Source of the DNA: Daphnia carinata
Lineage: Eukaryota; Arthropoda; Branchiopoda; Diplostraca; Daphniidae
NCBI RefSeq assembly: GCF_022539665.2
Contig: NC_081333.1
Span: 11,592,971 to 11,656,970, forward strand
Reading direction: 5' to 3'
Length of the DNA: 64,000 nucleotides
The position numbers and the translations under genes were made by a program. Under the pieces are notes generated by a model that was not told the DNA's origin, ran no database searches, and saw only the letters and a list, made by a program, of their open reading frames with translations. Positions 1,313 to 63,851 of this stretch are shown in pieces. The stretch's first letter is position 1; each line of letters begins with the position of its first letter.

Positions 1313-4300
1313 GATAAATTCGCCGTGCTAATCGTTTAAAAATGTCGTGCTTGTCGGGAATGTTTGAAAATCCGCTCGTGGTAGCTCACGTTTCCCTTGT
1401 TTGAACTGCATGCCCGTCCTTGTGCGACATCTGTGTAGAATTCATGGGGGGAAAAATCGTTTCGTTGCGACATTCGCTTCGGTGCCAAATCAATTAAAAC
1501 ACATTCATCCAAAAAATACGGGCAACTTTATTGACCTGTTTGATGGTAAGTAAGCTTTATAGTTAAACATACAGCAGTAAAGATGTCTGAAGCAGTCTAA
1601 TTGCCTTGCCCCTTTTACCTTTCGCGGTTGTAAGAAAGAAGACTTTCTAGTTGGTTTTCCCCTTCCATCTTCGCCGTCGGTTCTTTCAAAATCTGCAACG
1701 TTGTGCAACATCAGCCCCTTAAGCGTTACGTCACGTGTCACTTTGCCGAACTGGAAAAACCTAAACTTCCGTGTCCCGTAGAGGAAATATCAGAAAGCTA
1801 TATGGCCGTATGAGATGGTACCCCAGCAATGGACGATGAGTCAGATTCATTGGCATTTTTGCACTCGTTTGCCTGAATGCCCAACTTATTTCAAAATGCT
1901 ATTGCAACGAACAGTTTTTCTTTCTCGATCCGATGTTTTGTTGCAATTTCAAAAAGGCAGTTGGGTACGACGTGCGACGAAATGATGCAATAAATTCGTC
2001 TAGAGCCGCGCATATTGATTTCAAATTTTCCAGCCCTTGCCAAATGCTGAAAAGAGAACCCGACAATATTATTGACATTGTTCCCACCAAACCGGTGTGA
2101 GAGCGGTAGGAGCAACAAATAACTAGCGTTTCGAGAATCGTCAAAATTTTTAATAGTAAAAAAAGAAAAACGTAGGCTAACTCATTAGCTAAACGAATGG
2201 CAAAAAATGAAAATCCTGGCTTACGTACGTGAGAATTAAAATCTGAATTATTTTAGGACTTTTCATTTGAATTCGATGTGAAAATGCCAATTGACATGGG
2301 ATGCGCGTCACCTGAATTTATTCCAACTGCGATCAGATATTGACGGAACTAGTAAAAACCGATCACCGTACCATTATGAACATTATTCCACCACATGTTA
2401 AGCAACTAGAAATTTAGAAACCAAACATGCAAAAAAAAGAGATTAATTGATTAACAAGTGGCGCCGCTTCGACGACATAAATACTGATTTTCATAGAGAA
2501 ATGTAGGTTATTTCACTGGAAAGTAAGGAGGTTACTTTCGCGTTTATGAATTCTTCATCGAAAGCTTTTCGAGTTTTATTTCTCATCATGGTCAACTAGT
2601 TCAAGTAGGCGGACTACGACGTATGCCACTTTTTTTTTATTGACACTTAACCTGCGGCCCAAATCGTACCGGGCTTACGTGCCTTTTCTCTTCTATTTTC
2701 CTTGTCATAGCGGTTATTCAGAGGGACACATGTTAAACGGTTTTTTCCGATACCACGCCTTTTTGTTTCTCTTGTACGATCGTGACCCATTCTCGATTCT
2801 TAATGACATTGAAATGTCTTACTGCCCTAGACGGCCATTTTCTTTTTGCTAGACTATCGCCAATCGTTTATTTTTGGATTTCTCTTAGTTAGCTGCGACT
2901 GACCTCAATTTTCACTTAATGGAATTTATGCCCGATTGAATAATGGCTACTGCTTACCTGCCTAATCTCCCGCACCATTTTCATAATTAAAATTTTTGAA
3001 AGTTTTTTCTTTTTTGTGGTTGCTGGACGTGTTTTAAATGTAAATTCGCTGCCTTTCCAGTGGAAAAAAAACGGACAGCCTTGTCACGTAGTACGCGCCT
3101 GTCAATGTGCGGTTGATGGCTTTTTGTTCAAATTATTAAATGCGCATTTTTCTAGAGTGTAATGTTAAATCAGAGTTTTGACGTCAGCTGTGTACAGTTG
3201 TTTTTCTCCCGCACGGTCTTATCGTTGGTTTCCCAGCGTCCATACCTAAATAGCGATGGCCATTGCCCGCCTGTACCATCATGTACCATCCACCCTTAAG
3301 GGGATTTTTCTTCCTTTCCCTCTTTTTTTCTTTTAGATTTTTGTTTTCCTTTCTTTTAATTTTTTCGGGTTTTCGTGAACTTACTGAGAAGACAAGAACC
3401 CAAAAAGGCCCAGCGGCTTTCTATCAGTGCATGCCACTATGTCCAAGTACGGAGTCCTTTCTCCAGTGAAAGATTTGATTCAACTCCACGTATTGAAAAC
3501 GCATATCGTGTGGAAACAAAATAATGCTTACACCAGTTTTATGAACGGCGTCATGGGCCGAATGAGAGCAAGAAGAAGTAGGTGACCTGCTACGTGGGCT
3601 GCGTGGGCAGGCGAAAGGTGTCTGACAGGAGGGCGACCGTGAAACGTTCAAAACGGGTAAAACTGAAATCAAATGCGGTCGCAGCGTGTGCTACTAGCAG
3701 ATCGTATAAGTAGAAGAATTCTCGGTAAATCTCTTGGCCGGTTAGGTGCGTTTCACGAAATCAGGCATGAAAAAACAGGACGAGGAAAACACAGTCGGTT
3801 GACATTTGAGTGGATTCCTGCTGCATTTCTAGTAGCAAATTAACGCATACTCGAATTCGAACGCCCTTCGATGCGGGTAATAATCAATGACCAGCCTGCC
3901 ATTCTGGAAGATAACCTTTCGAAAAACACTGAAATGAAAATTCTATTCCTAGATGTGACCTTGCATTCGAGATAAAAAAAGACGTAGTGGATGTGTTGTA
4001 AAGAAAACTGATTAACAATCAGCGTCCCTTTTGATTATTGATTTATTTTTTTTAGCTCTTTAAAGAATACACATCACGTCGGTTGTTTTCTTGTTGTTCA
4101 GGTAACATTCTAGTAGTCACCGTCAATCACGTAGGGATTCTTCCGATACGAACCGTCTTATCTAATATCGGGATGGCACCTTGCATACTACCATTCTTGG
4201 TATTTTATCGCTTTAACTGTACACTTTTCTTAGAGAGTTGAGAAAAAGAGCTCCCTGGGCGGTGGAATAGGTATGTGCCTGTCTGCTAGACTTCGTCATA

Positions 4301-4967
4301 CTCTAGCTGGTTTCAGCCAGTATCTACATTCAACCGATCTCTCTTCGTTTATTAAAAGCTTTTCCTTATGTCCTTAGTATCACTAGTATGTCCAATGATG
4401 TCTTTCCGCAAATGTCCTTATTTCATTTGTACCCTGCATTTTTTTTTCTGTCGGCCATTGAGCTTGTCTGAATCAGCCGTATCTTATTTAATCTGTGTGT
4501 CATGTTTTGACAATTTATTATGGAGTGTTACCATAATATCTAAATCCCTTAAGCCATTGCTTTTATATTGCGGTTTTATTCTTTTGGATAAGTGTCGAAA
4601 CGAAAACAGCTAGATGTATTGAGACTAGGATATGGTCAAATAGTAAACAAGGCGACAAAATTTCCTATTCACATCATCACTACGACCAACATGCGTGTGT
4701 GTGTTAGATAAAAAAATGTTTGTGCAAGTGTTTGTTATGATTTGGAAGCCGCGCCTCCTCTCTCCTTCCCAAACCCGTTCCTCCCAATACAACGCCTAGC
4801 CTCGCACATATAGGAGGAGGTTATGTTTGGAGAAGCTGTCTGCCAGAGGTGGTCAAATGCGACTGTCTCCGACCTGCTTACCTTCAGTTTCGTCCGGAAC
4901 GTCCACCTTGCCACGAGAAAAAAGAAGCCCTCTTACAAGAACGTAAGAGCCACGTTAAGTTTTCGTC
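1313..4967. other. 3.7-kb stretch without a recognisable gene
   Basis: This AT-rich stretch lies between the PHOSPHO2-like gene and the SLC4 gene. Only short ORFs below 85 codons occur on both strands, and none has recognisable motifs or a splice partner. It probably holds the promoter and non-coding 5' exons of the SLC4 gene. A CACATATAGG element near 4805, after a C-rich stretch (4755-4790), is a candidate core promoter but is unproven. Confidence 0.4.
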
Positions 4968-7900
4968 ATGGCGTCTAATAATCAAGAGCCACCCAGCATT
5001 CTTGTTAATGAAGGTAATCACTATTCAGTAACTTGAAATTTTCGATTGATTGTTTTTATTTATTTATTTCCATTTTAGGTGATACAGGGGTGAGAGTTTT
5101 AAGCCCGTCTCCTGGTGTTAAGAGGCGATCTCTCCGCAACAGGAGGTCGGATGCGATGCATGGTAAGACATATTCAATGTAATTGCTTTCTGTTTTCTAG
5201 TTCAAACTTTCTAAATTTTAGATTTGCCGCCGAGTATGCGAGTTCGTTTTATCTTGGGTGAGGATGCGGATAAACCAGGTCAAAATGAGCCACGTCCCAT
5301 CTTTTCCGAAATGGAGGAGTTTAAAAGCGATGATGGTACTGATGGCGAATGGAAAGAAGTTGCTCGGTAAATGGGTTCGCATGATTGCATATTCAACAGG
5401 ATGACCTAAATGTATATTTACGATATGTAGATGGATCAAGTTTGAAGAGGACGTGGAAGACGGCGGTAACCGATGGACTAAACCTTTCGTCGGCACCTTG
5501 TCACTTCACGCGCTCTTCGAATTTCGTAGCGCTTTGCTAAATGGAACTTTAATGCTGGATGCGGAGGCTACTACTGTCGAGGAAGTGGTTAAGGTCATTG
5601 TCGACAAAGTCTGCTCTACTCATCAACTGACGGCCGATCAGAAGAACCAAGTATGTTACATGCGCCATCAATGCCAAAAGAAATGTTGACATCGATTTAT
5701 GTTTGTAGATGATGGAAGTCATGGCCTGTCCTCATCGACATCTTTACGAAGTCCAAAAATCCGCCCCACTACTGATGAGCGAGAAAAGCCGCAACAGTTC
5801 GGCGAAAAGTAGGTTTACCACTAACTCATCTTTCCTGAGGAAATGTAGATTAGGCCAGTACATCCGTTTTTCGTTTGTACATGAATTGCTATTGTTATTT
5901 ACGTTCGTCTACATTTTTTTCTTTGAAAAGCGGAACGAACAGTTAAGTATTTACTCACACGGCTATTCGCATTTGTTTTCTAGATTTAACCGAATCACGC
6001 TCGAAAGTCGGCCTAGCTTTACCCAGCGTTCCGTCCATGACAAACACCGCGAATGCCGCAAAAGTATGCATTTACCTTTTTAACTAAACATATTTTAGTA
6101 TGACGAGTGGGGTCTCTTCCACCGCGTTGGAAGTTGAACACATTTTTTATGATTCCATCACTTTATTATTTGAAGGGAAATTCACCGTTCATGAAGAAGA
6201 TTCCACCTGGAGCCGAGGTGAACAACGTTCTAGTGGGAGAAGTTGACTTTCTGGACAAGCCGGTTTCGGCTTTCGTTCGGTTGTCCAAGGCCGTTGTTTT
6301 AGGTGATTTCGCCGAAGTCCGACTACCTTCGCGTTTCTTTTTTCTGCTTCTCGGACCCAAGGTATCAGTTCTAGATTACTAGGTGTCACGTATTTGAATA
6401 ATTGGTCAAGTCCCGTCTTGAAATCAACAGCAAAAGAGAAATCCAGTTTTTTTAGTTTTTAATGACCTGAATCACGGAATGCGATATACTCTTTTGCTTG
6501 TTGATCACGACGCGCCGATAAGACAAGTGATGGATAAGGCTAAACATAACAAAAAATTCGTTATTTTTATTTATTGTAGACTCTAATCCAGTCGTGATAT
6601 TAATCTCTAAGTCGCGTAGCGCTAAAAAAAATTTGTGTGTACGTCAAACAAAAACGAAAGAAAAAGGTTAGCCAAGTGAAACCTAACTATCTAGCCAAGG
6701 TTCAAGGCTCGCCACCTTGATGAAATATACCCACCGCCCTGTTCGGATATTGTACCATCCGGTTACTGCCTAGCTTGGAAATCGTATCTCAAGGATCATT
6801 GGGTTTTACACAAAATGATTTATTGAAAAAAGATTACTCCGCTCTCTGATAGGTTCGGTCCATTGACGTAGTTTATAACACGAATTTCACAATCTTGGGA
6901 AATAAGTTAAGTCAACAAAGTGAGAATATGACACGTTCTTTTCTTTTCAGGGACAATTGGAGGATTATCGCGAGGTAGGCCGAGTTGTGGCCACCTTGAT
7001 GTCCGATGAAGTTTTCAATGCCGTTGCATACCGCGCAAAGAATCGCGACCATCTCTTGGCTGGCATTGATGAATTTATGGATGCTGTCACCATTCTGCCG
7101 CCCGGTGAATGGGATCCGTCTATTCGTATCGAACCCCCGACCAATGTACCTTCTCAAGAGCCGCGAAAGAATCCCGATAAGCCACCAGAAGAGAAGGAAG
7201 ACCCTGCTTTGGAGGAGCTCAAAATTTTGGAAAGCCAAGGCCTCGTCCGTACCGGACGTTTCTTTGGTGGCTTGATCGACGACGTGAAGCGCAAACTTCC
7301 ATTGTAGGCAATCTTATGTAAACGTTACGCGGTTTAAATAATAATGATGTGTTCGTGACATTAGTTACAAGTCGGATTTTACCGATGCGTTCGCCGTCCA
7401 GAGTATTGCATCAATCACCTTCTTGTACTTTGCTTCCTTGTCACCGATTATCACCTTTGGTGGACTGCTGGGAGATGCCACTGAGAACCGACTGGCGGCG
7501 CTTGAATCTCTCTGCGCTGGATGCATTTGTGGAATGTAAATGAACATTTTTTTTTTACTTTCACTATTTATAATTCTATCCATCTTTCTGGTGGGAGGAA
7601 AAAAATGTATTTATTTACCCTCGCGTTTAAATTCCAGAATCTATTCCCTGTTTGCCGGACAGCCCCTCGCCCTGTTGAATGCCACTGGCCCTGTCCTGGT
7701 TTTCGAAGGTATTCTCTACAGTTTCTGCAGGTAACATTCCATTTTTCCCCTGACAATGGAGGAATTTTCTTTTCTAACCTTAACCATATCTTGCGATTAT
7801 CTCTTGAAGTAAAAACGGCTACGATTACCTTTCACTCCGCTTATGGGTGGGTGTCTGGATGGGTGTCTTTATGATCACCCTTTGTGCCTTTGAAATCTCC

Positions 7901-30864: not shown

Positions 30865-31236
30865 ATGAGCTTTTTAAATAGTGGTGTTATATCGAGCATA
30901 AAACGAGCTCTTAATTTGCATTTTCTTATCAATCATTTTGGGAGAACAAGTTCTGGTTGTTTCATAAAAACATATCGTTTAACTGCCAGCATGACAGATA
31001 TTCTCAAAACGGAGAAACCTCTCGGAATGAAGGTCGATGCCGATCCCTCTGTTAGTGCTAATCAAACTTTTGAAATTTCCGACGTGGACAAAATTCGGAC
31101 AGTAGAAGGTATTGCCGAAGATTGTACAGATAAAGGTGTTCTACCTGTCCATACTGAACATCTGTTAAAATCAAGTGATAACCGAACAGTAGAAGAATCC
31201 CACGAAGGAAATGCTGTGGAACTACAAGCATCAGAG
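30865..31236 (+). CDS. candidate alternative first exon of the RPUSD2-like gene
   Basis: This 124-codon open exon starts at ATG 30865 and ends at a GT donor after ...LQASE in phase 0, the phase needed by the exon at 41689. The N-terminus MSFLNSGVISSIKRALNLHF is basic and lacks acids over about 48 residues, so it looks like a mitochondrial presequence. An internal Met (residue 43) precedes an acidic region. Human RPUSD2 has a similar layout, as I remember it: a short basic start and then a second Met. The link to RPUSD2 is inferred from phase and direction, and the exon could belong to another, unrecognised gene. The start codon lies 41 bp right of the foldback element and is divergent from DNAL4. 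Confidence 0.5.
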
Positions 31237-34330: not shown

Positions 34331-34783
34331 ATGGAAATGCAGCACCCGTGGCTATTACCGTTCCTTCATCCGTTAACTACAGCGCCGCCCATCCAGCTAA
34401 CTCTCCCTCCGCCACCACATCAACCTCATCATCATCCCCATCATCATCCGCATCAACACCACCACCCCCATCACCATGTCCAGCAACAGCAGCCGCAGCA
34501 GCCTCATCCGCACGTCCATCATGCTCATCATCACGCCGCCGCCCATCAGCTGCCCTCGACGTCGATGGGATTGACCCTGCAGCCCATGTTGACCCCGTCG
34601 GGGGCTCTCCTCTTGCCGGCCTTGCAGCAGAACGCTGCGGCCGCTGTGGCCGCTTTTGCCGCCGCGGCCCATCAACTGGCCGCCCATCAGCAAGGATCCG
34701 CCGTGGCGGCTTACAGCGCCATGGCCGCCACCAATTCGCCCGTTCTTATGGCTCCCTTTCAACCGCAACGTAGTCGACTCAAG
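34331..34783 (+). CDS. His/Gln/Ala-rich first exon of the RPUSD2-like gene
   Basis: This exon has 151 codons, phase 0 at its donor. It begins [20 protein letters not shown], then has long runs of His-Pro and His-His (about residues 30-80), a Gln patch, and an Ala-rich stretch (about 105-140) ending QRSRLK. Such tracts are low-complexity and probably disordered; they are common in arthropod nuclear proteins. Phase and direction fit the exon at 41689 and no other gene lies between. A second frame is also open across the same repeats, which is expected from CAY/CCN/GCN repeats. Confidence 0.65.
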
Positions 34784-37700: not shown

Positions 37701-40700
37701 GAGGGCATCTTTCGCCATCTGTTTTCTCTGTTCCAGCGCTAGGGAACCGCAACGAAATGTGAAGTAAGGAACCGCCGCATGGCGGAACGCATTCCTGCCT
37801 TGTTTTAATTTTTCCATCTCTTGTTTCTTATGCAACGCGAGGACGCAGGTTAGGCAGTCTATTCTATCGTGTTCTGTTCGGCCAGTTAACAAGCGAAAAC
37901 AGAAAAATTCCGTTCTTGTAGCTGTGCAGATGAAAAGATGTGTGGCAGAAACGACGGACAGGAACGTCTCCCAGCCGCACGGAGGCAGGACGCAGCACAT
38001 AGCGTGTGCCGCTGGATTCCGGGGGAGGGTTTTTCACAACTGATGGATTACCGAGATAGCTACTTGTCACTGGGCGTCGTTGTTGCAATAGCAGAAAAGA
38101 CAGCAAGAGAGAAAGAGAGAGAGAAAGACAAGAGAGTAGCTTTTACCTCCTCCCTCCTTATGATTATACTATATATATATATATATATATATTTATTTTG
38201 TTTTTGTGGTCGGTGTAGGGAAGAGAGAGAGAGGGAAAAAAAAAGGAAGGAAAGATAGCAGCAGTAGTGGAGGAGGGTATTGAAGAATGTCTGAAAATAG
38301 AAATAGTTTTTGGGGAGCTTTTTTGGCCGGTGGCTGGTGATGTTTGGTGTGCGTCTCGTACAGTTGTGTGTGTGTGTGGTGTTTACTGGTCTGTGGCCGT
38401 TTGTCTCTAGTTTTTTTTTTTTTTGTGGTTGGCTGGCGGATGATTTTGATATTGGAGAGGAGCCCATTATTGGTACTAGGAAACCTGCCCTAGTGCTCAA
38501 CCCTTCGACGTACTCTGCGTTGTAGGGAAATATTCCAAATGTTATGATGACGTTTCTGACGTCATTCTAATCAATCAATCGCTATGTCAACCTATGCTGT
38601 AAGCTAAGAATGCCAGGGCCAGGGGGATACATTTAAAAAAATATTTTTTAGGTAGGAAAGGAAAGAAAAAAAAAAACAGAAAAACATTCAAATAATTATT
38701 TTATTTCTGCACTGTCCTGTGGTCGTGTAAAACCGTCGTCACCTCATTTTGATGGCATGTCAACGTATGGCCCTTCCCCGCTACCCCTCCGAAATTCGAT
38801 CCAGGGGGGCGAGGAAGGCGCAGCACATTTCTCATTTTCAGAAAAAAATTTCTTTTTGTTTGTTTTCTCTCCGAGGGTAATTGCGAATTGAACTCGTCAT
38901 TTTTCTTTAGAACTTTCAAAGCTTTTGTTGTCGTCGCAAAGGTTGATCCCGACCGTGAATGACTTTGAATCCAAAGATATGCTCGTTATCTTTCCTAATT
39001 GTCGGTCTCATTCTTTCTTTCTGGCTCAGAATTGTTTTTTTTTTTTATCTTTTGTCTCTTCTCTTATGAATTTAATTGGCATTGACGGTCGTTTTTTCAA
39101 ATTTTAATCCGGGGATAGCGAATGTTTAAAGGATGACCCGACTTTTACCGCTTTATGGAGACAAGAGGGATCTTTGTCGACACATCCGTAACAAGTACTG
39201 CCAACTCGACTATTATTTTGGAAGCTTTTCAAATCTCGCATTGGAAATTTTTTTTTTTTTTTTTTAAAGATAATAAAAGAACGGATGTGATGTTCTAAAG
39301 ATTCGAAGTATTTTTTTTTTTTTTTTTTAAGGTTCGGTTGGTCGTTAATTGGCTCCAACCGAAACTCCTTTTTTTTTGTGTGTGTGTTTTTACTTTTGAC
39401 CTCCTCGGTTGGTCGTCTAAATGTTTCAACCATTTTTGACGCCTGTCACTTTCACTGGTTTTGTGCTAGAAAAAGAAAAAAACTTTGTCCGAAACTTTGC
39501 TCATTATCCAGCATCCATTGCCGCCCGGCCGCACACTAAAGTGTGTACGGAATCGAGTCGACTCGTTTAACCGACAAAGACCCCCACCATCCCTTCCTTC
39601 CGTTCCGTGCCAAAAACTTTTATTTTTCATCTTTTTTTTTTTTTTTTTTTTTTTTACCTTTTCGTTCTCGGAATTTCTCAATCCATCACGGCCAACATTT
39701 GACTCCCCCACCTAAAACTATTCCGGCACGCTTTCCTTTTGTGTGCGTGTGTGTGTGTGCTGAAATCGCTTCCTCCTCTGACATTAAATGCAGCAATGAA
39801 AATCAGCGCCGTTTTCCTTCTCTTTATTTGGGGGTTTTTTTTTGTGTGTGCCCTTTTAAATTTTTGACGGCCAACACAATAAGGTGTTGCCACCAAAAGA
39901 GTGTTCTCAAACGCCAACCGAAATATACAACGACTCTTCCATAGCTGAAGGGAATATAGGGGGGGGGGGGGCATCGCTAGGTTTTTTTTTTTTTTTTTTT
40001 TTAATGACGTCGTTATTTGGACTTTGTAGTAATCCTCTTGTTCGTATTCTTGTCTTGGATCTTTGTCCTCCTTCCTTAGACGCAGAGTGGAAAACCCGGG
40101 AGCTGTGTAATATAGGCGTAACGAGCACCCTCCCTCTCTTTTTTTTTTTTCTTGTTTGCTGTAACACTTGTGCTGTATAACCCTTTTTTTTTTCAGACAC
40201 ACACACAATATCAGAATTAATTGATGATATTGTTCTGTTGTTGTTTTTTTTTTTTTCTTACTTGTTTGTTAGCGTGAATTTTTGTTGTTGCGCCGTGACG
40301 CAACTGTCGGTTGTCCCGGATACGTAAGCCAATCTCTTCTTTCTTTCTTTCTTTTTTTATACCACAAGATGATGAAAATGCCAGACGTAATCATGTGAGC
40401 TAGTTATCGCTTTTGTTTATGGTTTTTTTTTTTTTTTGAACTTTTGTTTTGTAGGAAAAAGAGTAAATATTAAGGGATTATTAGGAGGTTATTAAATACT
40501 TGTGATGGAATAAGGATTAAGACCAAACTGTACGGCTAATAACATGAGACAAAGCCGTGTGGTGTATATGTTACTAATAGAAATTCGTGTTTATTTTGCT
40601 GTGTCTCTCGCTACTCAAAACTTTCTCGGTTTATTTGCACATCTCATTGTCGTCCGACAAGAGTTCTATTGACGCAGCCCAAACAGGCAAAAAGGAGGTC

Positions 40701-43700
40701 AGTTTGAAAAACGAAAAAAAAAAAAAAAAAGGGTGGGGGATTCTCTGTTTGAATTTGATGCCCTCAAATAATCGTGTGCATCCTCGGAAAAAGAAGAAAG
40801 TCCCGGATTTATTTATGAACAGTATTTCTTTCTTTTGCTGGAAAAAAAAGTAAAGTGGTCCATTTGAGTAGTTATCCAGACGCAGAAAAGAACACGATCC
40901 TTTACTCTTTTCAAGTATTTAAAAGTCAGCACTCGAGTTCTTTTTTTTTTTTGAGTCATCGTCATACATGCGAGTGTGTACCAAGTGCCCGTGGTGTCAA
41001 CTCTGAATGATTTAATTCACTGCCGTTCGATATTTTGTTGTTTCCCCTTCTTCAAGTTTTTCGCTTGATCTTTTTGTATGTTTATTTAAAGAAAGATTTA
41101 TCCATCCGGTTCAGTCCGAATGTGATTTCCCCTTCATCAACAATTCAAATGTGAAAATGGGTTTCGGAGGCTCTCGCCTTGGCCATCATCAACCTGTTTT
41201 AATATTTTTTACTTAAACATAAACATACAGGACCCTGCCTCTTTACCCGTTTGATTGCGTTTGCCACTCATTATCATCGAGTTGAAAGCAAAAAGGGGTC
41301 TTCCATCATGTACCCTCCTCGCTTCGAAATCTCAATGCTTTCGGGATTCATTAAGAGTTGGGGGGGCAGGGTAAAACTAGAGGAGCGTTACTCGCCAGAG
41401 CGCACTCGCTTAAAGAGTCAAAAGTTCCGTTTCCCCTAAAGACTTGGAGAGACGAACATCGGGGAGATAAAGTCGGCCAACATTTTTTATTTTTCTTTTG
41501 CCAACACACAAATCGACGTGATTCGTCATTTACATATATTTTTTTTTTATTGTACGTGAAACAGTTTCAGTGCCAGACAGACGTACCGTGTTTAACTTTA
41601 GAAAAATGTTGTCGAGTGTAGAATCGTGTAGTACGTTAATGATATTAATTATCGATTTTTTTTCGTTTTTTTTTTTTTTTTAATTCAGGTTTCGGAGCGT
41701 GAGAATCGGCCAGTGGAAGCGAACGGGAGCGCTGCAGCGGTGGCTGCCATGATAAGCGCGGGAGTCGTTTCCGAGGCCAAGAGAAAACATCACGACGATC
41801 AAGTGGAGCCTTTCAAAGATGTTAAACGAGTAAGTGTTTTGTTTATTTTTCATTTTTTTTTTTTTTTTTTTTTTTTTTTCAAATGCAATCAATTGACGAG
41901 AAAAAAGCTTATCTTCTAAGCTCTTGATTGCGTTTCATTTTTGCCCGAGTTTTTAAAATCCTTTGGAATTTGATTTCGTGTGTTTCCGACTTTCAAATTG
42001 GATGACGTTTTTATGGGGCCCTTTGTGGTACGAGACAGTTAGTAGGAGCAAAATGCGAGCTGTCAGGTGTGGTCGCAAACTGACATGGCAAAATTGAAAT
42101 TCGTGAAAGGAAAAAACGTGAATTGATTTCTGTGCTGAATTTTAAGCAACAACTTTGTTTTCGTTTTTTTTTTTTTTTTAATTCCGAGTGGAGAGCCGAG
42201 CGTTCGGAATTTAAATGCAAAAAAAAAAAAAAAAAATTGTTAAGCTATTTATTGTTGTATCTTTTTTTGCGTGTAGGCTAAAATCGAGACGAGGGCGCTG
42301 AAAGCTAAACGCCCCGGATTCACCGACGAGCGCTACAGCGAAACGGAATACTTTTTTGAAAATGGTAAGTCCCCCCCTTTCGGTCTTTTCTGTTTTGACG
42401 ACTTTAGACTTTGCAAGCCAATCTTTTTCGTCCTACATGTATTTTCTTTTTTTTTTTTTTTTTTTGTTGGTTCACTCCGGATGGGAGTGCAGTATGCGTC
42501 AGCTTTTCTCCATACTTGTGTGTCCGATTCGCTCCGATGGAATCAAATTTCCTTGCGCGCATCGCCTTTCTTTTCTCTGTGTGTGTGTGTGTGTGTGTGT
42601 GTGAGATGAAAATCGATGGCTAAATCCGCACCCTAAAATGTGACACGCAGCTCGAGTGTGAACCTTTTTTGGATATCATCGACGGGGGGGTTGATGAATG
42701 TCTCAATGCAACTGGAGCGGAAATTCTTTGCTGGACAATGATCTCATGAAGAAACGGGGCGGATTTTCCGATCCGGTTCAACTGAATGAGATGTTTTTTA
42801 TTATTTGATAAAATTACGGATGGCTTGAGAAGAAAAAAACAAACAAAAAACAAAAGAATGTCGACAAGTGAGTAGCTTTTTTGAATTGGGCATCATCGTG
42901 GATGTCAAACGCATTTTTGCCCCACTCCCTCGTAAACAACAAGACGCAGACTGTGAGAGCTTTGATTGCCTCGTTAACGACTGGACGAACCCGAATGGGC
43001 AGATCTACGTCATCCATTAGCGTCCACATGTTATGCTTTTCTTATGAAACGATGATTTTTTTTCGTCGTTGGACGATGTAGGCGGGGGGATGGTAAAGAT
43101 AGATCACGCAGCTATTGGCCATTTCTGTGGAACTGTAGCGAGTTTTTCTTTTTTTTTTTTTTTTATCGTCGGCTAACTTGTTTATCGCAAACGAGTCAAT
43201 GGATTTGTTTTTGTTTATCTGGGAGTGGGGGGGGAGGGAGGAGGAAAAGTGGGCACAATTTTTCCGGCTATGTGACGTGATTTGTTAACCACGAGAATTG
43301 AATTTGTTTGGTCTTGCTGGCAGGGAATACATGGAAACTCGGCTGTAAGGACACAGTCCTCATATCCGGTTGGGATGCAACGGGGGGAAGTTATAGGAAA
43401 GAAAAAAAAAAGGAGGGGGGGGGGATATCTAGACAAAAGAAATCCCGCTGACTGGAAATGCGATTCGCGTTTGCCCAGTTCATTGACTTGGTGAACCGCT
43501 ACTGGAATGAACAAACAAGATGAACTAGATTACTCTCTTTCCTCTTTTTTTTTTTTTTTATTTGAAAGGGAATTGGAAATTCCTCCTTTTTTTTTTTCTT
43601 GTGGGGGAGGTTGTTCTTCCTCGTTTTGAGATATTATTCGCTGTGGAAAGCCCAGTTGGCTGGACCGCATAGACTGGACATTTCACGCATCGTTGCTTGT

Positions 43701-56988: not shown

Positions 56989-59093
56989 TGAGCTACAAAC
57001 CTCTCAATGTACTCTGGGCTTCGTCATCAAAACTCGATTGAGTCCTTCGTCTTTTATTTTGGATGAAAAACATCTTTGCTCATCCGCAAAAGCGCGTTGA
57101 ATCGATGACTGTGCCAAACTTTTTTTTTTTTTTTTTTTTTTTTTGATTTGAAACACGAGACAGAAGAAGAACATTGACGGAGAGAGGGAGGAGACGTGAC
57201 TGGACAATAGACACTCTTAGATTTGCTCAGTATACAGTGCCCATAAGATGAGAGAGAGGGGAAAAGAAGAAGAGGAAAGTGCTGGTGTGCGTCGATGCCC
57301 TCTCCTTTCAGTCGATAACGAACAAGAGGATGGATATCCAGCAACTCATCAAATGTTGTTTAGCCTTTCACGACGCCCTCCTTTTTCTTTTTTTTTCTTC
57401 TTCTTTCTTTCTTTCTTTCTTCCTCTTTGTGCCGATCTGTGTGTATATGTGTCTGTTTGGCTGGAAATAGTCTGCTCTGTTTGCCCGTACAAAGTAGAAA
57501 ACTCGCTTTGCTTTGTACATTTTGATTTTATTACGTTTTGCCTTTTATCAACGACTATTTTCGTCGAGATAATAACAATTGGAAAAAATCAAGTTTTTTC
57601 TTATACATTCGGTGGGAAAAAGAACAAACTCTTGATACATGTTTTTGGTCGAGGTCACATCCTTCAAAAAAGCGACTGGACACGCAACGCTATCGTTACC
57701 CCTCGTCGGGGTAGTGACAGTTTTACACGACATGACCATCGCAAACATAATAATACCTACCATTGTTCATAGCGTCTACAAACAAAGCAAAAGTGTTATG
57801 TTCGTGACGATAGTTTTCTTTGTTTCATTTCACATCTTGAAATGTGAATGTCTTTCAATTGATTTAATTTTATCCTTTTATTTATTTATTTTTTTTTTTT
57901 TCGTTTCAGGTCTTCGCAAAGTCTACCCGTACTACTTTACGTTCACGACGTTCACCAAAGGTCGCTGGGTTGGAGAGAAGATACTCGACGTCTTTGCCAG
58001 AGAGTTCAGAGCTCATCCCGTCGAGGAATATGTAAGAAAAAAATTTTAAATTTCGCTTCAACAAAAATGTTTTTGCGCGCATATTAAAAAAAAACGTGTC
58101 TTGATATTCCTGCTCTCTTGATTGTTACGGACTAAAGTTTAGACTTGTTACGTATCGAGCGTTCTCCGACTGGCCGGGCTGCTTGTCTTAACGGCAGCGC
58201 AACACGCGCCGTCATTCTTCTAGACGGGTAGCAGCTGCGGTAACACGGAGAACCTCGTGTCAGTTGACACGCAAACAAAGCGCGTGACTCTTTGGGTTTT
58301 TTTTTTTTTCAATCTTGTCGGGAGGTCGTCATTTCACGCTCCAGTTTGCTCCTTTTCTTTTTTTTTTTTTTTCAATTGGATGTTTCCTCCCCCTCCTTTT
58401 TTTTTTTCGTGCTCGGTTACCGTTTCCGAGGTTCTTTTTTTTTTTTTTCCCCCTTTTGTTCCCGACATTTTTTCGCTCGGTCGTTTCTTAGGACGATAGA
58501 GTCGAGTGTGAATCAAATGAAATTATCAAAGGATATTTCACGTTCATTGTGCTCAATTGTTGATCAATTTTTTATGATTCTTGGCGATGCAGGAGCGGTG
58601 CATCAAGTCCGGATCGCTGACGGTCAATTATGAAAAGGTGGATATTGATTACCGACTGAAACACAACGATCTGTTAGCCAACATCGTGCACAGGTAAAAG
58701 AACAATGTTCTTCTTTTTTTTTTTTTTCCGTGTTACATTGAACTTTACAGGTTCATGAATTTTTTTTTGTGTATTTTTCCGATGAGCTCTTTCGTTCCTT
58801 TAAAACGTTCTGAATTCCAAACAATTCAGCATAGCTTGTTAGCGATCGTTGACGTTTAATCTTTCAACCGTCAATGATGTCAAGACATTTCGAAAACGAA
58901 GTCGGCATGATAGGCTTATAGCTGTACACGTATCATAGACGAAAAACGAGAAACATGACGTCGCTCTCTCTCTCTCTCTAACCAAGTTGTTGTTGTGTGT
59001 TGTTGCGTACTGCTTGCGACCTGCTGATTGAATGGCGATGGAAACAAACAAACAAATTGTGTACATTTTATTTTTTCCAAAAACAAAACAAAA

Positions 59094-59135
<42 letters not shown>

Positions 59136-60754
59136 AAACGGCTGCGCAGACACGAGAGGCCCGTGATCGGGGATGCGGTGAGCATCGTCCACCTCGACGA
59201 CGACTTGGTGGTCGTTCACAAGCCTCCCTCCGTCCCTGTAAGTTGTTATTCTTCTTTAATGATGTTCCTTTGTTGTTGTCGTTGTTGTTGAACGTCATTG
59301 ATTGGCAAATTCCCCCAAAAAATAACCTTCTTTTTTTTTCCTCCTTTCCTTTTCTTATCTTCTTCCTTCATTCCTTGAACGAAAACATCCAAAGAAAACC
59401 TTTAAATTATAATTCCCCCCCCCCATTCTAAACAGCCAAAAAAAAAAAAAATTCCCCTTTCTTCTAATCCCCTCCTGCAATCTGGTATGGATATAGCCCG
59501 TACGTGAAATCCGAACCAATCAACATCGAGCTGGGCATCTCTCTTAATAGTATATCGAAATTCCTTTTTATTTTATTTTATTTTTTTTGCCCCGTGGTAT
59601 AACCCCCTAAGTTCCTAGCCTCTTTCGCCCTTTCGTGATTGGGATACGATCCGGAAACTAGAGAAGGTTTTTATTGGGATATGGCAGGGAGGAAGATGTA
59701 GAATCTCTTTGATCCCCCTCCCCGAAGAGGTTCGAGTGTGCTGCCTTAGTTTTGCAAAGGATTTCAAAGACAATCAACAATTGAAGAGAACGCAGCTAAT
59801 ATCGCGTTCGTGATTAGCAGCGGCGGGTAGCGGCATGTTTCCTTTTACGTGGGGTGCATACACGTGGACACGCTGTTTTGAAACGTGCGTGCGCTCAAAA
59901 AAAAAAAAAAAAAAAAAAATGAGAACATTACCAGTAGATGTGAAGTTGTACATATGTTGGAGATGATAGAGAAGAGTATCAAATCCAGTTGGTAGATCGT
60001 GGAATATCGATCCGAAGGGGGGGGGGGGGGGGGTTCGCTTGACACTCAAATGGAAATGGCCAAACATAAAAGAGAGGAGATGGAACGATATCAGCAAGGC
60101 CTCTTTCTTTCGTCGAGAACCAAATGTCTTCGATAATGAGATTACAAGACTTGATAGTAGAGTTATTATGTGAGAAACGAGGCGGAATGATGCCAGAAGA
60201 GGCAGAACATTCTTTTTGATCCGATTCCGGCCACAGGAAGGACGAAGGCTTTACGTATTTGTCTATTTGATTTGTCTTCTCTCTTTTTTTTTTTCCGATG
60301 CTCAAATTTGGAACAAAAAAAAGTTGTTTTCGACTTCATCGTGGATCAATCGAAAGAATTGATTTTTTTTTTTTCTTATTCCTTTTCTTCGCGCTCGTCA
60401 TTAAAAAAGATGGCATAATTGCTGGCAATTGATTCAGAGTTCTCTTTCTTTAGATGTTCTTCTAGTACAATTTGAATTCACTTTAAAAAAAATAGGAACA
60501 AAATTTAATGCTTGTACGGGGGAGGGGGGGGGGGGACGACGAGCTCTGGTCGTCGGGTCCGTCTGGAACATTAAAGAATGAATAAAAATGGAAACGATTG
60601 TTCGCGTCGCTCGCCGTCGTTGCCCGAGACCAGATTGAATCGTATGCGATTACGGTGGCCAACAAAAGAAGGGCCAGGTCGTTGTCACGCATCTCGTTGT
60701 GTAAAAGACGTGGCAGGTGGATGGTGTGTAACGCATCTCAATCGTATCTCGGTG

Positions 60755-60788
<34 letters not shown>

Positions 60789-61431
60789 CTTTCCCCCATT
60801 CCCGAACGTTGTTCGCCGCGCATCTATGAATAGAAAAGGAAGAAGAAAAAAAAAGAAAAAAAAATGGTCGCCTATATTTCCGCGTCTTTTTGCGGGATTG
60901 CCATAGGCATGGTCCGCGTTGCCTGTCTGTTTGAATAAGTGAGGGACATGTTCCGCTTTTCTTCGTCCGCCTTGCGTTCGTCTCTTTTTTTTTTAGAATC
61001 CGCCTTTTTTGGAGGCTACTGCGTCATTGTCGAACGGAGCTGAAAAAACATCCGTGTTGTCTATCTCAGCTTTCTTTCATGCCTATGTCTATATACACCT
61101 TGAATCCCCGGCAAATATCAAGAAAGAATTGAGCATCGATCGATTGACTTCCTTGCGCATACTCGAGGCCACCCAATATAATGGATTTGGATTTCTTTCT
61201 TCTTTTTTTTTTATTTCGTTTTTTTTTTTTTTTTTTTTTTTTTTATATTTGTTCACGTTGGGAAATGTGGCAATCCAATCACAAGGCGGCCATCCGTGGG
61301 TGTAATTTTGAAATAGGAGCAGCGTGAATCTTGATGCGCGCCACCCATTTTGAGCGGCAAAGTCATAAAACAGTTAAGAGCTATAGCGCAAATAAAGCTT
61401 CTGCGACCTTCCGTTTCCCCCCCCCCCCCCC

Positions 61432-61462
<31 letters not shown>

Positions 61463-63851
61463 ATTCCGTAGTGGTTCTTTATGCTCTTAAGTCTTCGCAG
61501 CCGACTGGCCCCCGAAGTGTAATGAAATGAAGCCAATCGTCTTGATGAAGCAACTCGCTCGAAAAAGAAAGGCGAAAGTTGTACGCGCGTTTGCACTTGC
61601 CACATCTTGCGACGAGTTGCCCACATTCCGAGACACGTTTGTTTTTGTTTTTTTTTTTTTTCCCTTGCTTGCCCGTCTTAAGCGACTATTCCGCCTTGAC
61701 GTAAATAATCAAGAGATCAACTAATAAACAAAACGAAAGGCGCCCGTGAACGCACCGACTTTCCGTTTGGCATTTTTCTCATTTTTCTTCGTTTGTTTAT
61801 TTAATCAATTGAATTTATGTTGTTTTCACAATTGGAATGCTGATGAAAGTTTATTTTTTGTTTTTTTTTTGTTTCTTTTTTTGTTTTTTTTTTATTTATC
61901 CATTGGTTTGAACCCTTGCCTTGCATCCTGACGTGCTTGAAAAAATGTATATATATATCGGGACGTGATTTGATGATGACGCCGTTTGCTGCTTCACCGC
62001 TTTCTCACGCCCGAAAAACAAAATTTCAATCGACTCTTGTGCCGTCACCTCCGTTCACCAATGACACAGACATGAGGTGCCGGTAGAGTCGAAGGTTATC
62101 GAAATTGTTCATCAAGATGACGACATAATCGTGATCGATAAGCCGTGCTCTGTACCGGTACGTACCGTTTATCTTAAACAAATTCGGTTTCGAATACCAT
62201 TTTTCTTGTTGTTGTTGATCTTTCCCTAGAAAATGTTTTAGTTCTAAACCTTTCTTTTTTTTTTTTTTTATCCCGATGCAATTTTTTTTAAATCTCTATT
62301 TTCTAAAGTGGATTATTTTATATTTATTCGGTTGTTTTGTGACTTGTGTTCGCCAACTGCGGTTCCTTCCGTTCTCGTCTTGAACATTTTTTATGGCCGG
62401 AGAACGTCATTGGCCTCTTGGATTTGACGATAAGAGCAAAAGACGATGAAACCCCTCCATCCACCCTCAACTCGTACTCTGTTAACGTCTCAATTCCGGT
62501 GCGAGGTTTTCTTTTCTCGACGACATGCGATTCCAGTGGAAACATATCCATTACGGAAAATTGGATCGTCAAGTCCTGTTCCACTTTGACTAGGTGGAAC
62601 GCTCGATTGCCTTGCTCGTTTTTTATTTTTTTTTATTTATTTATTTATTTATTTATTTTTTTTTTTTTTCCTATTCCGTGTATGTACGCAGCCACTTGGG
62701 GGGAGAGGGGGGGGGGGGATGATGTTGTTATTCTTTGCTGGGACTTAGGCGTAGCGCTGGGGAATGAGGAAGAGATTTTTCGGCGGATAGGAGAGAGGGC
62801 CCAATCTTTGGTTCGTGCACGTGCTTCATCGAAAGATGATTGTACCAGGTTGCACACGCCTTGTTTTTGTTTGAGTCTCAATTTTTTCTTTTCCTTTTTG
62901 ATACATTTTCCTTCTCCTGTGTCCTTACACCATGGCCTTACCGTTCATGCTTTTTATTTCCCCTCTACATTTTTTTTTTATTTCCGCTATTTGCCAAGGC
63001 TTTTTTTTTTTTTTTCCTGGTTCGTCTTATTGCCATCCAATACTTAACTGGCTGTACGTATTTTGCAATTTCCCCATCCTTTCCGTGTTTGTTTGATACG
63101 CCACCTTGTCTGTTTTTTTTTGTGTATGTGGTGTGGGTTAACGTCATCCGCGGCTCAATCGTTCCAAATTCCGGGTAGTTGGGGGGGGGGGGGGGGGGGA
63201 GTGCAATAACACACACTTTAATCAGACATGTACAATTTGAATTCCAAACAGCAGATGATGCCCGTCTTTTTTTTTTATTATTTTTTTTTTTTTATACTAT
63301 GCGTGTGCGCATCTATTTGGCCGGGCCGTGCGGCAGCTGCTTTCAATATTGGATTGGGGATGATTTCCAAACCGATCGTAGTAGAAGAGAGGGAAGAGCA
63401 ATCGATTGAGCTAAAAAGTCGACTATTGATGTAGTTTCATTTGATAGCTGAACCCAATAACATCGGAATCGTGGAACGATTAGCTGCGGATCGGCGATAC
63501 GGACGCTTTCTCATTTCCCACTGCCCGAATTTCCTCTTATTGAAGAAAAAAGAAAATGTACTTTTGATGTTCAACTGGCCTTTAACTAGTCCGCATTTCC
63601 GGATGGCGCGTGTGTGTGTTTCTTATTTAGGTTCATCCGTGCGGTCGATACCGTCACAATGCGGTGGCTTTCATCTTAGCCAAGGAACACAACTTGCGTA
63701 ACTTGCGGACGATCCATCGGCTAGATCGGCTCACGTCGGGACTGTTAATGTTCGGCCGGAACCAGGAGAAAGCCCGACAGATGGAAGTGCAGATCCGCAC
63801 GCGCCTCGTCTCCAAGGAGTACGTCTGCAGAGTTGGAGGCGAATTCCCGAG
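34331..63851 (+). CDS. RPUSD2: RPUSD2-like pseudouridine synthase (3' end outside window)
   Basis: The exons are 34331-34783, 41689-41829, 42277-42364, 57910-58031, 58593-58693, then either 59150-59237 or 62070-62157, then 63631-63851, giving 404 residues up to the window edge. Exon 1 encodes a His/Gln/Pro/Ala-rich N-terminus. Exons 2-3 end [17 protein letters not shown], as in RPUSD2 just before the core. Exons 4-5 ([42 protein letters not shown]) form an S4-like RNA-binding part. The alternative exon gives RluA motif I (KPxSVP). Exon 7 gives [12 protein letters not shown] and motif [15 protein letters not shown] with the catalytic Asp. The enzyme isomerises uridine to pseudouridine in RNA. 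The start at 34331 is the first ATG of the exon. The introns of 6.9 and 15.5 kb are far longer than those elsewhere here. Remaining catalytic motifs lie beyond 64000. Confidence 0.88.
37071..37096 (+). repeat. CTT trinucleotide repeat
   Basis: Uninterrupted CTT/TCT repeat of about 26 nt, inside the first long intron. Confidence 0.85.
38170..38192. repeat. TA dinucleotide microsatellite
   Basis: Perfect TA repeat of 23 nt in the first long intron. Confidence 0.9.
42579..42602 (+). repeat. GT dinucleotide microsatellite
   Basis: About 12 perfect GT units, about 215 nt into the 15.5-kb intron. Confidence 0.9.
46151..46198 (+). repeat. GA dinucleotide microsatellite
   Basis: About 24 perfect GA units followed by an A run. 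This is the longest dinucleotide repeat in the window. GA repeats can bind GAGA-type factors in arthropods, but no role is shown here. Confidence 0.9.
47009..47027 (+). repeat. AAT trinucleotide repeat
   Basis: Six AAT units within the 15.5-kb intron. Confidence 0.8.
50350..50380 (+). repeat. T31 homopolymer
   Basis: One of the longest T runs in the window, inside the 15.5-kb intron. Confidence 0.9.
53622..53657 (+). repeat. interrupted GA microsatellite
   Basis: A GA repeat of about 36 nt with one C interruption, inside the 15.5-kb intron. Confidence 0.85.
56956..56986 (+). repeat. A31 homopolymer
   Basis: Long A run about 920 nt before the end of the 15.5-kb intron. It has no upstream gene-like sequence or flanking duplication that would mark a retrocopy tail. 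Confidence 0.9.
58032..59149 (+). other. introns flanking exon 5 of the RPUSD2-like gene
   Basis: Two introns (58032-58592 and 58694-59149) flank the 101-nt exon 58593-58693. Both are homopolymer-rich. The second ends with an A36 run only 19 nt before the acceptor of the first alternative exon. Confidence 0.6.
59095..59130 (+). repeat. A36 homopolymer upstream of alternative exon 6a
   Basis: This is the longest homopolymer noticed. It sits where a pyrimidine tract would be expected before the acceptor at 59148-59149. Confidence 0.9.
59150..59237 (+). CDS. alternative exon 6a of the RPUSD2-like gene
   Basis: An 88-nt exon, acceptor GCGCAG and donor GTAAGT. With the AG of exon 5 it encodes [18 protein letters not shown], then [12 protein letters not shown]. 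This is the stretch around RluA motif I, where family members usually have an acidic or Asn residue before KP; 6a has His there. It is about half identical to exon 6b and of the same length and phase, so the two are interchangeable. The acceptor lacks a good pyrimidine tract because of the A36 run. Confidence 0.88.
60017..60033 (+). repeat. G17 homopolymer
   Basis: A run of 17 G between the alternative exons. G runs in pre-mRNA can bind hnRNP H/F or form quadruplexes when several lie together; here only one run is local. Confidence 0.85.
61417..61462 (+). repeat. C23T23 homopyrimidine tract
   Basis: Twenty-three C followed directly by 23 T, a pure 46-nt pyrimidine strand about 610 nt upstream of exon 6b. 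Run lengths may be affected by assembly error. Confidence 0.85.
62070..62157 (+). CDS. alternative exon 6b of the RPUSD2-like gene
   Basis: An 88-nt exon, acceptor GACACAG and donor GTACGT. With the AG of exon 5 it encodes [18 protein letters not shown], then [12 protein letters not shown]. It has Asp before KP as in human RPUSD2 (VVDKPSSIP), so it looks like the more canonical version. If it followed exon 6a the frame would read ACA TGA, a stop at the second codon; if both were skipped the next exon would be out of frame. Confidence 0.9.
62158..63630 (+). other. 1.5-kb intron before the catalytic exon
   Basis: Homopolymer-rich, with a TTTA repeat near 62634-62658 and a G19 run at 63181-63199. 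The acceptor TCTTATTTAG is ordinary. An open stretch at 62346-62590 has balanced composition but no motif. Confidence 0.6.
63181..63199 (+). repeat. G19 homopolymer
   Basis: Nineteen G in a row, about 430 nt before the catalytic exon. Confidence 0.85.

What the first reader, a model, noticed from the sequence alone, without database searches (positions are those of the whole stretch)
59150..62157. Mutually exclusive homologous exons in a pseudouridine synthase
Two exons of exactly 88 nt, 2.8 kb apart, encode alternative versions of the same stretch that leads into RluA motif I (ends VHKPPSVP versus IDKPCSVP). Both have intact splice sites, the same phases and about 50% amino-acid identity. 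Because 88 is not a multiple of 3, joining 6a to 6b reads an immediate TGA, and skipping both shifts the frame. Only one-of-two inclusion gives a full enzyme. Alternative motif I would change residues near the catalytic pocket, suggesting two enzymes with different RNA targets or activities from one gene. I do not know of a description of this in RPUSD2 genes.
Basis: partly seen in the sequence, partly recalled or inferred. Interest (0 to 1): 0.88.

Follow-up and report, generated by a model that had tools for sequence, protein, structure and literature searches.

The report
Ancient alternative exons in RPUSD2
A water flea gene for an RNA-modifying enzyme carries two versions of the exon that leads into its active-site region, only one of which can be used at a time, and matching pairs appear in beetles, moths and mosquitoes, so one gene has probably made two forms of this enzyme for a very long time.

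Summary
Confirmed. The window (a Daphnia close to D. magna) holds an RPUSD2 gene with two 88-nt exons, 6a (59150-59237) and 6b (62070-62157): same phase, intact splice sites, 16/29 residues identical. Either alone gives a full reading frame (507 aa from exon 4); both or neither gives an early stop. Protein searches show this is no Daphnia oddity: exon-6 peptides of insects and crustaceans fall into class A (mostly NKPASIP) and class B (mostly DKPCSLP). Seven species (3 beetles, 4 mosquitoes) have A and B proteins identical in 75+135 flanking residues, so isoforms of one gene; six gene models contain A then B. Daphnia 6a groups with Artemia class A, 6b with class B, on short sequences and moderate support. 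Both acceptors end unusually long AG-free stretches (161 and 218 nt; 30-94 at the nine other acceptors), a mark of distant branch points. In the copepod Lepeophtheirus A and B proteins come from different genes. Ten paper searches, with capped listings, showed no description. The kind is well known; gene, apparent age and motif I placement appear new. Junction reads and different RNA targets remain untested.

The parts
30865..31236 (+). Probable alternative first coding exon 1a, basic N-terminus without acidic residues in the first 40 aa; its C-terminal end runs in frame into exon 2 as in D. pulex isoform X6
   Evidence: ORF; 5 Lys/Arg and 0 Asp/Glu in first 40 aa; donor position; likeness to the P0002 N-terminus read by eye, no tblastn match reported
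34331..34783 (+). Alternative first coding exon 1b (His/Pro-rich N-terminus, as in D. magna P0001)
   Evidence: tblastn of P0001 1-163, 92%; donor AAG|GTAGTA
41689..41829 (+). exon 2
   Evidence: tblastn of P0001/P0002, boundaries
42277..42364 (+). exon 3
   Evidence: tblastn, 100% over 30 aa, boundaries
57910..58031 (+). exon 4
   Evidence: tblastn
58593..58693 (+). exon 5 (shared, upstream of the alternative pair)
   Evidence: tblastn
58987..59147 (+). 161-nt AG-free zone ending at the 6a acceptor; possible branch point CTAAC just upstream (first base at -172); contains a run of 36 A
59150..59237 (+). exon 6a (class [30 protein letters not shown])
   Evidence: all 29 residues identical to D. 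magna P0001
61850..62067 (+). 218-nt AG-free zone ending at the 6b acceptor; T-rich tract at its 5' end; possible branch point CTGAT just upstream
62070..62157 (+). exon 6b (class [30 protein letters not shown])
   Evidence: 26 of 29 residues identical to D. pulex P0002
63631..63851 (+). exon 7 (shared; motif [12 protein letters not shown] with the catalytic Asp)

Best explanation
This is a pair of mutually exclusive exons, made by tandem duplication of exon 6 of the RPUSD2 gene, most likely before the insect and crustacean groups sampled here diverged, and kept since. Shown: two intact homologous exons of equal length and phase; frame rules that allow only one; both classes in listed proteins of one gene in other species. 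Inferred: the spliceosome uses one exon per transcript, products with both or neither are cleared as nonsense transcripts, and both 3' splice sites use distant branch points, which leaves room for regulators to choose. Inferred, less certain: the two enzymes share fold and catalytic Asp but differ in the strand pair and residues that flank the motif I Lys-Pro (in Daphnia H-K-P-P versus D-K-P-C; elsewhere mostly N-K-P-A versus D-K-P-C), which tunes activity or choice of RNA (in human cells RPUSD2 targets are tRNA positions 31, 32 and 34).
Against: No RNA reads were available, so one-of-two use in this species is inferred. Daphnia 6a and 6b are both divergent: of the six class positions 6a has the usual A residue at only one (V22) and 6b the usual B residue at two (D23, C26); class margins are small (95 v 87 for 6a; 94 v 98 for the D. 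pulex 6b); the tree rests on 29 residues, and class A is not itself a supported clade (best split 0.0, leaving out one class A peptide). A separate duplication in Cladocera is not strictly excluded. The 6a acceptor has a weak pyrimidine tract (6 of 17), and its AG-free zone is lengthened by a run of 36 A. Most partners are automated gene models. No branch point is mapped, and no test of enzyme difference exists.
Confidence: 0.88

Rival explanations
1. The pair is real and mutually exclusive, but the two proteins do the same job; the pair is kept for control of amount, since mis-splicing to both or neither gives nonsense transcripts (an on/off valve), or because each exon has drifted under weak constraint.
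For: Both classes keep the invariant residues of the 50-sequence alignment, including Lys-Pro of motif I, and the two Daphnia forms model to the same fold. Loss may be tolerated: 29 of 29 named Brachycera proteins and 7 of 7 named Hymenoptera proteins that I classed are class A only.
Against: Residues beside Lys-Pro are largely class-specific in insects and crustaceans (before it: A has N in 45 and D in 9 of 56, B has D in 38 of 38; after it: A has A in 47 of 56, B has C in 36 of 38). In Lepeophtheirus the two versions come from different genes, which splicing control alone does not explain.
Confidence: 0.35
2. Daphnia's pair arose by its own later duplication and only resembles the A/B pairs of other groups.
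For: Small class margins for the Daphnia peptides and few of the class-typical residues; short sequence; moderate tree support.
Against: Same order (A upstream), DKPC in 6b, HER and KPPS shared by 6a with Artemia, HETPV in the related P0004 6b, and placement in the tree.
Confidence: 0.1
3. 6a is a decaying or rarely used exon and 6b is the working one.
For: 6a has His before Lys-Pro, seen in only 2 of 56 class A peptides, both cladoceran-type, where the others have Asn or Asp; a run of 36 A and a poor pyrimidine tract before its acceptor.
Against: All 29 residues of 6a equal D. magna, while P0001 matches exon 9 only 89% and exon 1b 92%; it is in a listed D. magna protein and, at 27 of 29, in P0018; the intron side of its donor is GTAAGT.
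Confidence: 0.05

Closest known systems
Mutually exclusive duplicated exons (muscle myosin heavy chain, Dscam1, OGDH 4a/4b, cacophony)
   Same: Tandem homologous internal exons, only one used; the cacophony pair is reported from insects and crustaceans including Daphnia (PMC9741552, passages); the OGDH pair depends on distant branch points (PMC7969005, passages).
   Different: Here in an RNA-modifying enzyme, next to motif I. The intervening intron is 2.8 kb, so the steric rule that enforces exclusion in OGDH (branch point close to the upstream 5' splice site) is unlikely to apply.
RPUSD2 (RluA family; human RPUSD2, Drosophila RluA-1 and RluA-2, yeast Pus8/Pus9)
   Same: Domain, motifs, HRLD, C-terminal block.
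   Different: The 66 vertebrate or vertebrate-like rows (HEPP start) each carry one exon-6 stretch, about equally far from A and B. Drosophila has two genes (PMC7718762, passages); the 10 Drosophila proteins listed here are class A.
Exons with distant branch points and AG exclusion zones (PMC1431707, passages)
   Same: Extended AG-free stretch ending at the acceptor, linked there to alternative splicing.
   Different: Both members of the pair have one; branch points here are not mapped.

Membership tests
RPUSD2 / RluA pseudouridine synthase | PseudoU_synth_2 domain (PF00849) | tested here: met
   P0001 E 2e-29 (D. magna, with 6a), P0002 E 6.7e-29 (D. pulex, with 6b)
RPUSD2 / RluA pseudouridine synthase | Motif II HRLD with catalytic Asp, in shared exon 7 | tested here: met
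   H365 R366 L367 D368 invariant in 50 sequences chosen from 283; exon 7 of the window has [10 protein letters not shown]; role of Asp as in RluA D64 is recalled
RPUSD2 / RluA pseudouridine synthase | Motif I Lys-Pro present with either exon | tested here: met
   K331 P332 invariant in 50 sequences of both classes
RPUSD2 / RluA pseudouridine synthase | Pseudouridine synthase activity of each isoform | not testable with these tools
   needs enzyme assay
Mutually exclusive exons | Homologous neighbouring internal exons of equal phase with intact splice sites | tested here: met
Mutually exclusive exons | Joint inclusion or joint skipping gives no full protein | tested here: met
Mutually exclusive exons | Transcripts with one exon or the other, rarely both or neither | tested here: inconclusive
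   proteins with 6a and with 6b are listed for Daphnia species, isoform pairs in 7 other species; no read counts
Exons with distant branch points | AG exclusion zone of 100 nt or more | tested here: met
   161 and 218 nt
Exons with distant branch points | Mapped branch point far upstream | not testable with these tools
   only candidate motifs CTAAC (6a) and CTGAT (6b)
Exclusion by competing RNA structures (docking and selector sites) | Conserved complementary intron elements | tested here: inconclusive
   the 25 longest of 1011 inverted repeats pair the A tract before 6a with T tracts, including the one before 6b; low complexity, no shuffle control made, no related genome to test conservation

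The most novel reading that the evidence does not exclude
One RPUSD2 gene has, since before the split of the crustacean and insect lines sampled here, made two pseudouridine synthases with different RNA targets by swapping the exon that builds the strands and flanks of motif I; some lineages do this by splicing (Daphnia, beetles, mosquitoes, and by their gene models moths and shrimps), others perhaps by two genes (copepods). An 'epitranscriptomic switch' would then be set by splicing, possibly with mutual masking of the A tract before 6a and the T tract before 6b in Daphnia.
Probability: 0.35. Interest if true: 0.85.

Novelty: new member of a known kind. Interest (0 to 1): 0.66.

Why it matters
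Stand-alone pseudouridine synthases are usually treated as one gene, one enzyme (general impression, not a tool result). A pair of exons next to motif I, found in crustaceans and insects, suggests that arthropods need two versions of RPUSD2. It gives a ready comparison (in Daphnia two natural versions differing in 13 of 29 residues, all else identical) to learn what sets the targets of RluA-type enzymes.

Tried and rejected
A search for relatives outside insects and crustaceans used a made-up query halfway between Daphnia and vertebrate RPUSD2; the named rows among the 120 listed were arthropods of those groups and vertebrates, no chelicerate, myriapod or mollusc was named, so whether the duplication is older stays open. 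A maximum-likelihood tree with bootstrap timed out; a FastTree was used instead. One search failed on a file name. One search (plasmids) gave only a bacterial RluC and was dropped. Exclusion by crowding of splice sites was judged unlikely because the exons are 2.8 kb apart; a U12/U2 clash because both donors are of the GTAAGT/GTACGT type. Competing RNA structure could not be judged. That 6b is the only working exon was rejected (see rivals). Only the best 120 rows of 3517, 444 and 2822 matches were listed, and clusters at 90% identity can hide isoforms, so absence of class B in Brachycera and Hymenoptera is not proven; likewise each Lepeophtheirus gene may still hold a second exon that no listed protein shows. 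Classes were called by BLOSUM62 score against two consensus peptides; the class A set includes unnamed rows whose organism I do not know, and the vertebrate set was taken by its HEPP start and by names. In the exon-6 tree, one B peptide (from P0123, cut short by its gene model) and 15 of 21 vertebrate peptides were left out; in the flank tree 47 proteins were chosen by hand from 283; the structure alignments used 50 of 283. Paper listings were capped (20 of 53, 10 of 27, 12 of 30).
Full report
WHERE IT LIES. The window is part of contig C3 (13.3 Mb) of a 108-Mb genome. Residues 1-250 of the protein read from exon 4 on (with 6a) are 98% identical to a Daphnia magna RPUSD2 protein and 92% to D. 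pulex and D. pulicaria ones. With P0001 from D. magna the match is 92% in exon 1b and 89% in exon 9, so the species is a Daphnia close to, but not the same as, the source of P0001. That P0001 (A0A0P5H1X9) comes from a transcriptome assembly is recalled, not checked.

THE GENE. I read exons 4 to 11 from the window and from L007 (57910-65800 in window-extended coordinates) and placed exons 1b, 2 and 3 by tblastn. The domain is PseudoU_synth_2 (on the D. magna and D. pulex proteins); motif II (HRLD) lies in exon 7. A genome-wide search with a 176-aa piece gave five matches, all exons of this gene, so no second copy of this kind shows at that sensitivity.

THE PAIR. 6a and 6b are 88 nt each with AG and GT borders, split the same Arg codon and end on a codon boundary. 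They share 48 of 88 nucleotides and 16 of 29 residues; identities by codon position are 18, 22 and 7 of 29, the pattern of old coding sequence. No third copy was found: the next best stretch in about 73 kb scored 27 against 153 and 152. Either exon alone gives a 507-residue frame from exon 4; both give a TGA at the second codon of 6b; neither gives a stop after 15 codons of exon 7.

THE SAME PAIR ELSEWHERE. I fetched 283 proteins in three searches (best 120 rows each of 3517, 444 and 2822). Scored against two consensus peptides, 6 of 283 hold two exon-6 stretches, each time class A before class B (Popillia, Molorchus, Dendroctonus, Spodoptera littoralis, Papilio, Orchesella). I read these as gene models that fused both exons. 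Leaving the vertebrate and vertebrate-like rows apart, there are 56 unique class A peptides (154 rows) and 38 unique class B peptides (69 rows); the 66 vertebrate rows (21 unique) lie about midway. The classes differ mostly at positions 3 (V 52 of 56 / T 37 of 38), 6 (T 45/56, L 36/38), 22 (V 53/56, L 36/38), 23 (N 45/56, D 38/38), 26 (A 47/56, C 36/38) and 28 (I 54/56, L 34/38). Of 20 protein pairs compared, seven are A and B proteins of one species (Rhynchophorus, Tenebrio, Anthonomus, Uranotaenia, Ochlerotatus, Armigeres, Anopheles coluzzii) identical over 75 upstream and 135 downstream residues; for six of the seven the tables give both the same longest contig length. So these are isoforms of one gene, already present, unremarked, in automatic annotation. 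Popillia and Dendroctonus agree too (75/75 and 77/77, their A protein being a fused model). Same-species pairs that do not agree are Lepeophtheirus and Thrips palmi (below). Class B is also listed for decapods, an isopod, copepods, a mayfly, a cricket, hemipterans, a thrips, many moths and butterflies. It was not seen in 29 named Brachycera and 7 named Hymenoptera proteins.

DAPHNIA IN THIS PICTURE. 6b carries DKPC like class B; 6a carries HER and KPPS like Artemia class A. But of the six class positions 6a shows the usual A residue at one and 6b the usual B residue at two, and the class margins are small (95 v 87 for 6a, 94 v 98 for the D. pulex 6b). In a FastTree of 100 peptides all class B peptides, with the three cladoceran ones, form one clade (support 0.81) and 6a groups with Artemia; class A as such is not a supported clade. 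I hold that Daphnia's pair is the same as the others at about 0.85-0.9. 6a is unchanged in all 29 residues from D. magna, and the JGI protein P0018 has it at 27 of 29; 6b has 26 of 29 in D. pulex.

TWO GENES IN COPEPODS. In Lepeophtheirus the A and B proteins differ in the flanks (66/74 and 111/135) and lie on contigs of different length. In a tree of flanks from 47 proteins, 11 B proteins (Lepeophtheirus, Tigriopus, Eurytemora and eight unnamed) form one clade (0.86) apart from Lepeophtheirus A and two unnamed A proteins beside it; one unnamed A protein (P0075) sits beside the B clade, which I cannot explain, unless that gene still holds both exons. In the same tree the A and B forms of Daphnia, shrimps, Tenebrio and Ochlerotatus group by taxon, as isoforms should. 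Thrips palmi A and B also come from different genes (63/75 and 109/135).

SPLICING. Donors of 6a and 6b match CAG|GTAAGT at 7 of 9 positions, the others examined at 4 to 7. The 6a acceptor has only 6 pyrimidines in 17 and follows a run of 36 A. Both acceptors end exceptional AG-free zones: 161 nt (6a) and 218 nt (6b), against 30-94 nt for the nine other acceptors of the gene (exons 2-5 and 7-11). Of 3318 AG-to-AG gaps on the + strand of the window only 4 are 161 nt or longer, and 2 of the 4 end at 6a and 6b; none of 3601 on the - strand is that long. Homopolymer runs help to make such zones, the A run in 6a's above all. PMC1431707 (passages) reports such zones as the hallmark of distant branch points and of alternative exons. 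A CTAAC and a CTGAT motif lie just upstream of the two zones; such motifs are common, so this is only suggestive. Exclusion by closeness of branch point and upstream donor, as in OGDH (PMC7969005, passages), is unlikely over 2.8 kb. The longest inverted repeats pair the A tract before 6a with T tracts, one of them the T tract before 6b; low complexity makes this weak.

FUNCTION. Human RPUSD2 makes pseudouridine at tRNA positions 31-32, in cytosolic and mitochondrial tRNAs, and at 34 in cytosolic tRNA (PMC12716993, passages). Drosophila RluA-1 (sensory neurons) and RluA-2 (ubiquitous): loss of either makes larvae over-sensitive in nociception tests (PMC7718762, passages). None of this tells what 6a and 6b do differently. 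I think tuned activity or target choice most likely, on the ground that class residues beside motif I recur so widely and that Lepeophtheirus has both versions in separate genes; this is inference.

PRIOR KNOWLEDGE. Ten searches of the held papers (eight of them aimed at this question, at branch points and RPUSD2 targets) showed no paper on alternative exons in RPUSD2 among the listed titles and abstracts: 'RPUSD2' with 'mutually exclusive' gave one paper, a breast cancer study (search listing); 'RluA-1' with 'mutually exclusive' and 'Drosophila' none; 'RPUSD2', 'alternative splicing', 'insect' none; 'pseudouridylate synthase' with 'mutually exclusive exons' none. The exon database Kassiopeia covers 12 Drosophila species, Arabidopsis, C. 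elegans and human (PMC3923563, passages); the 10 Drosophila proteins here are class A, which may be why the pair was missed. The library is open-licence only and listings are capped, so a description elsewhere is possible.

Noticed in passing
30865-31236 and 34331-34783: Two alternative first coding exons of the same gene: one with a basic, acid-free N-terminus that could send the enzyme to mitochondria (by eye like D. pulex isoform X6), one rich in His and Pro (as in D. magna P0001). With 6a/6b this could give four enzyme forms.
   Followed up: partly
39580-39791 and 62999-63176: The two other AG-free zones of 161 nt or more on the + strand; the first ends at GCAG (AG at 39792) in the intron before exon 2 and might precede an unrecognised exon.
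   Followed up: no
P0075: An unnamed class A protein (source 'merc') whose flanks group beside the copepod class B gene; it may mark a copepod gene that still has exon A.
   Followed up: no
P0183 and P0140: Thrips palmi has a divergent RPUSD2 paralogue with an A-like exon besides the gene with the B exon (flanks 63/75 and 109/135).
   Followed up: no
L007 about 3800-5640, - strand: Next gene downstream encodes a p24/GOLD protein (EMP24_GP25L, E 2.1e-13) with, read by eye, a long Gln/Met/Pro-rich repeat in front of the domain.
   Followed up: partly
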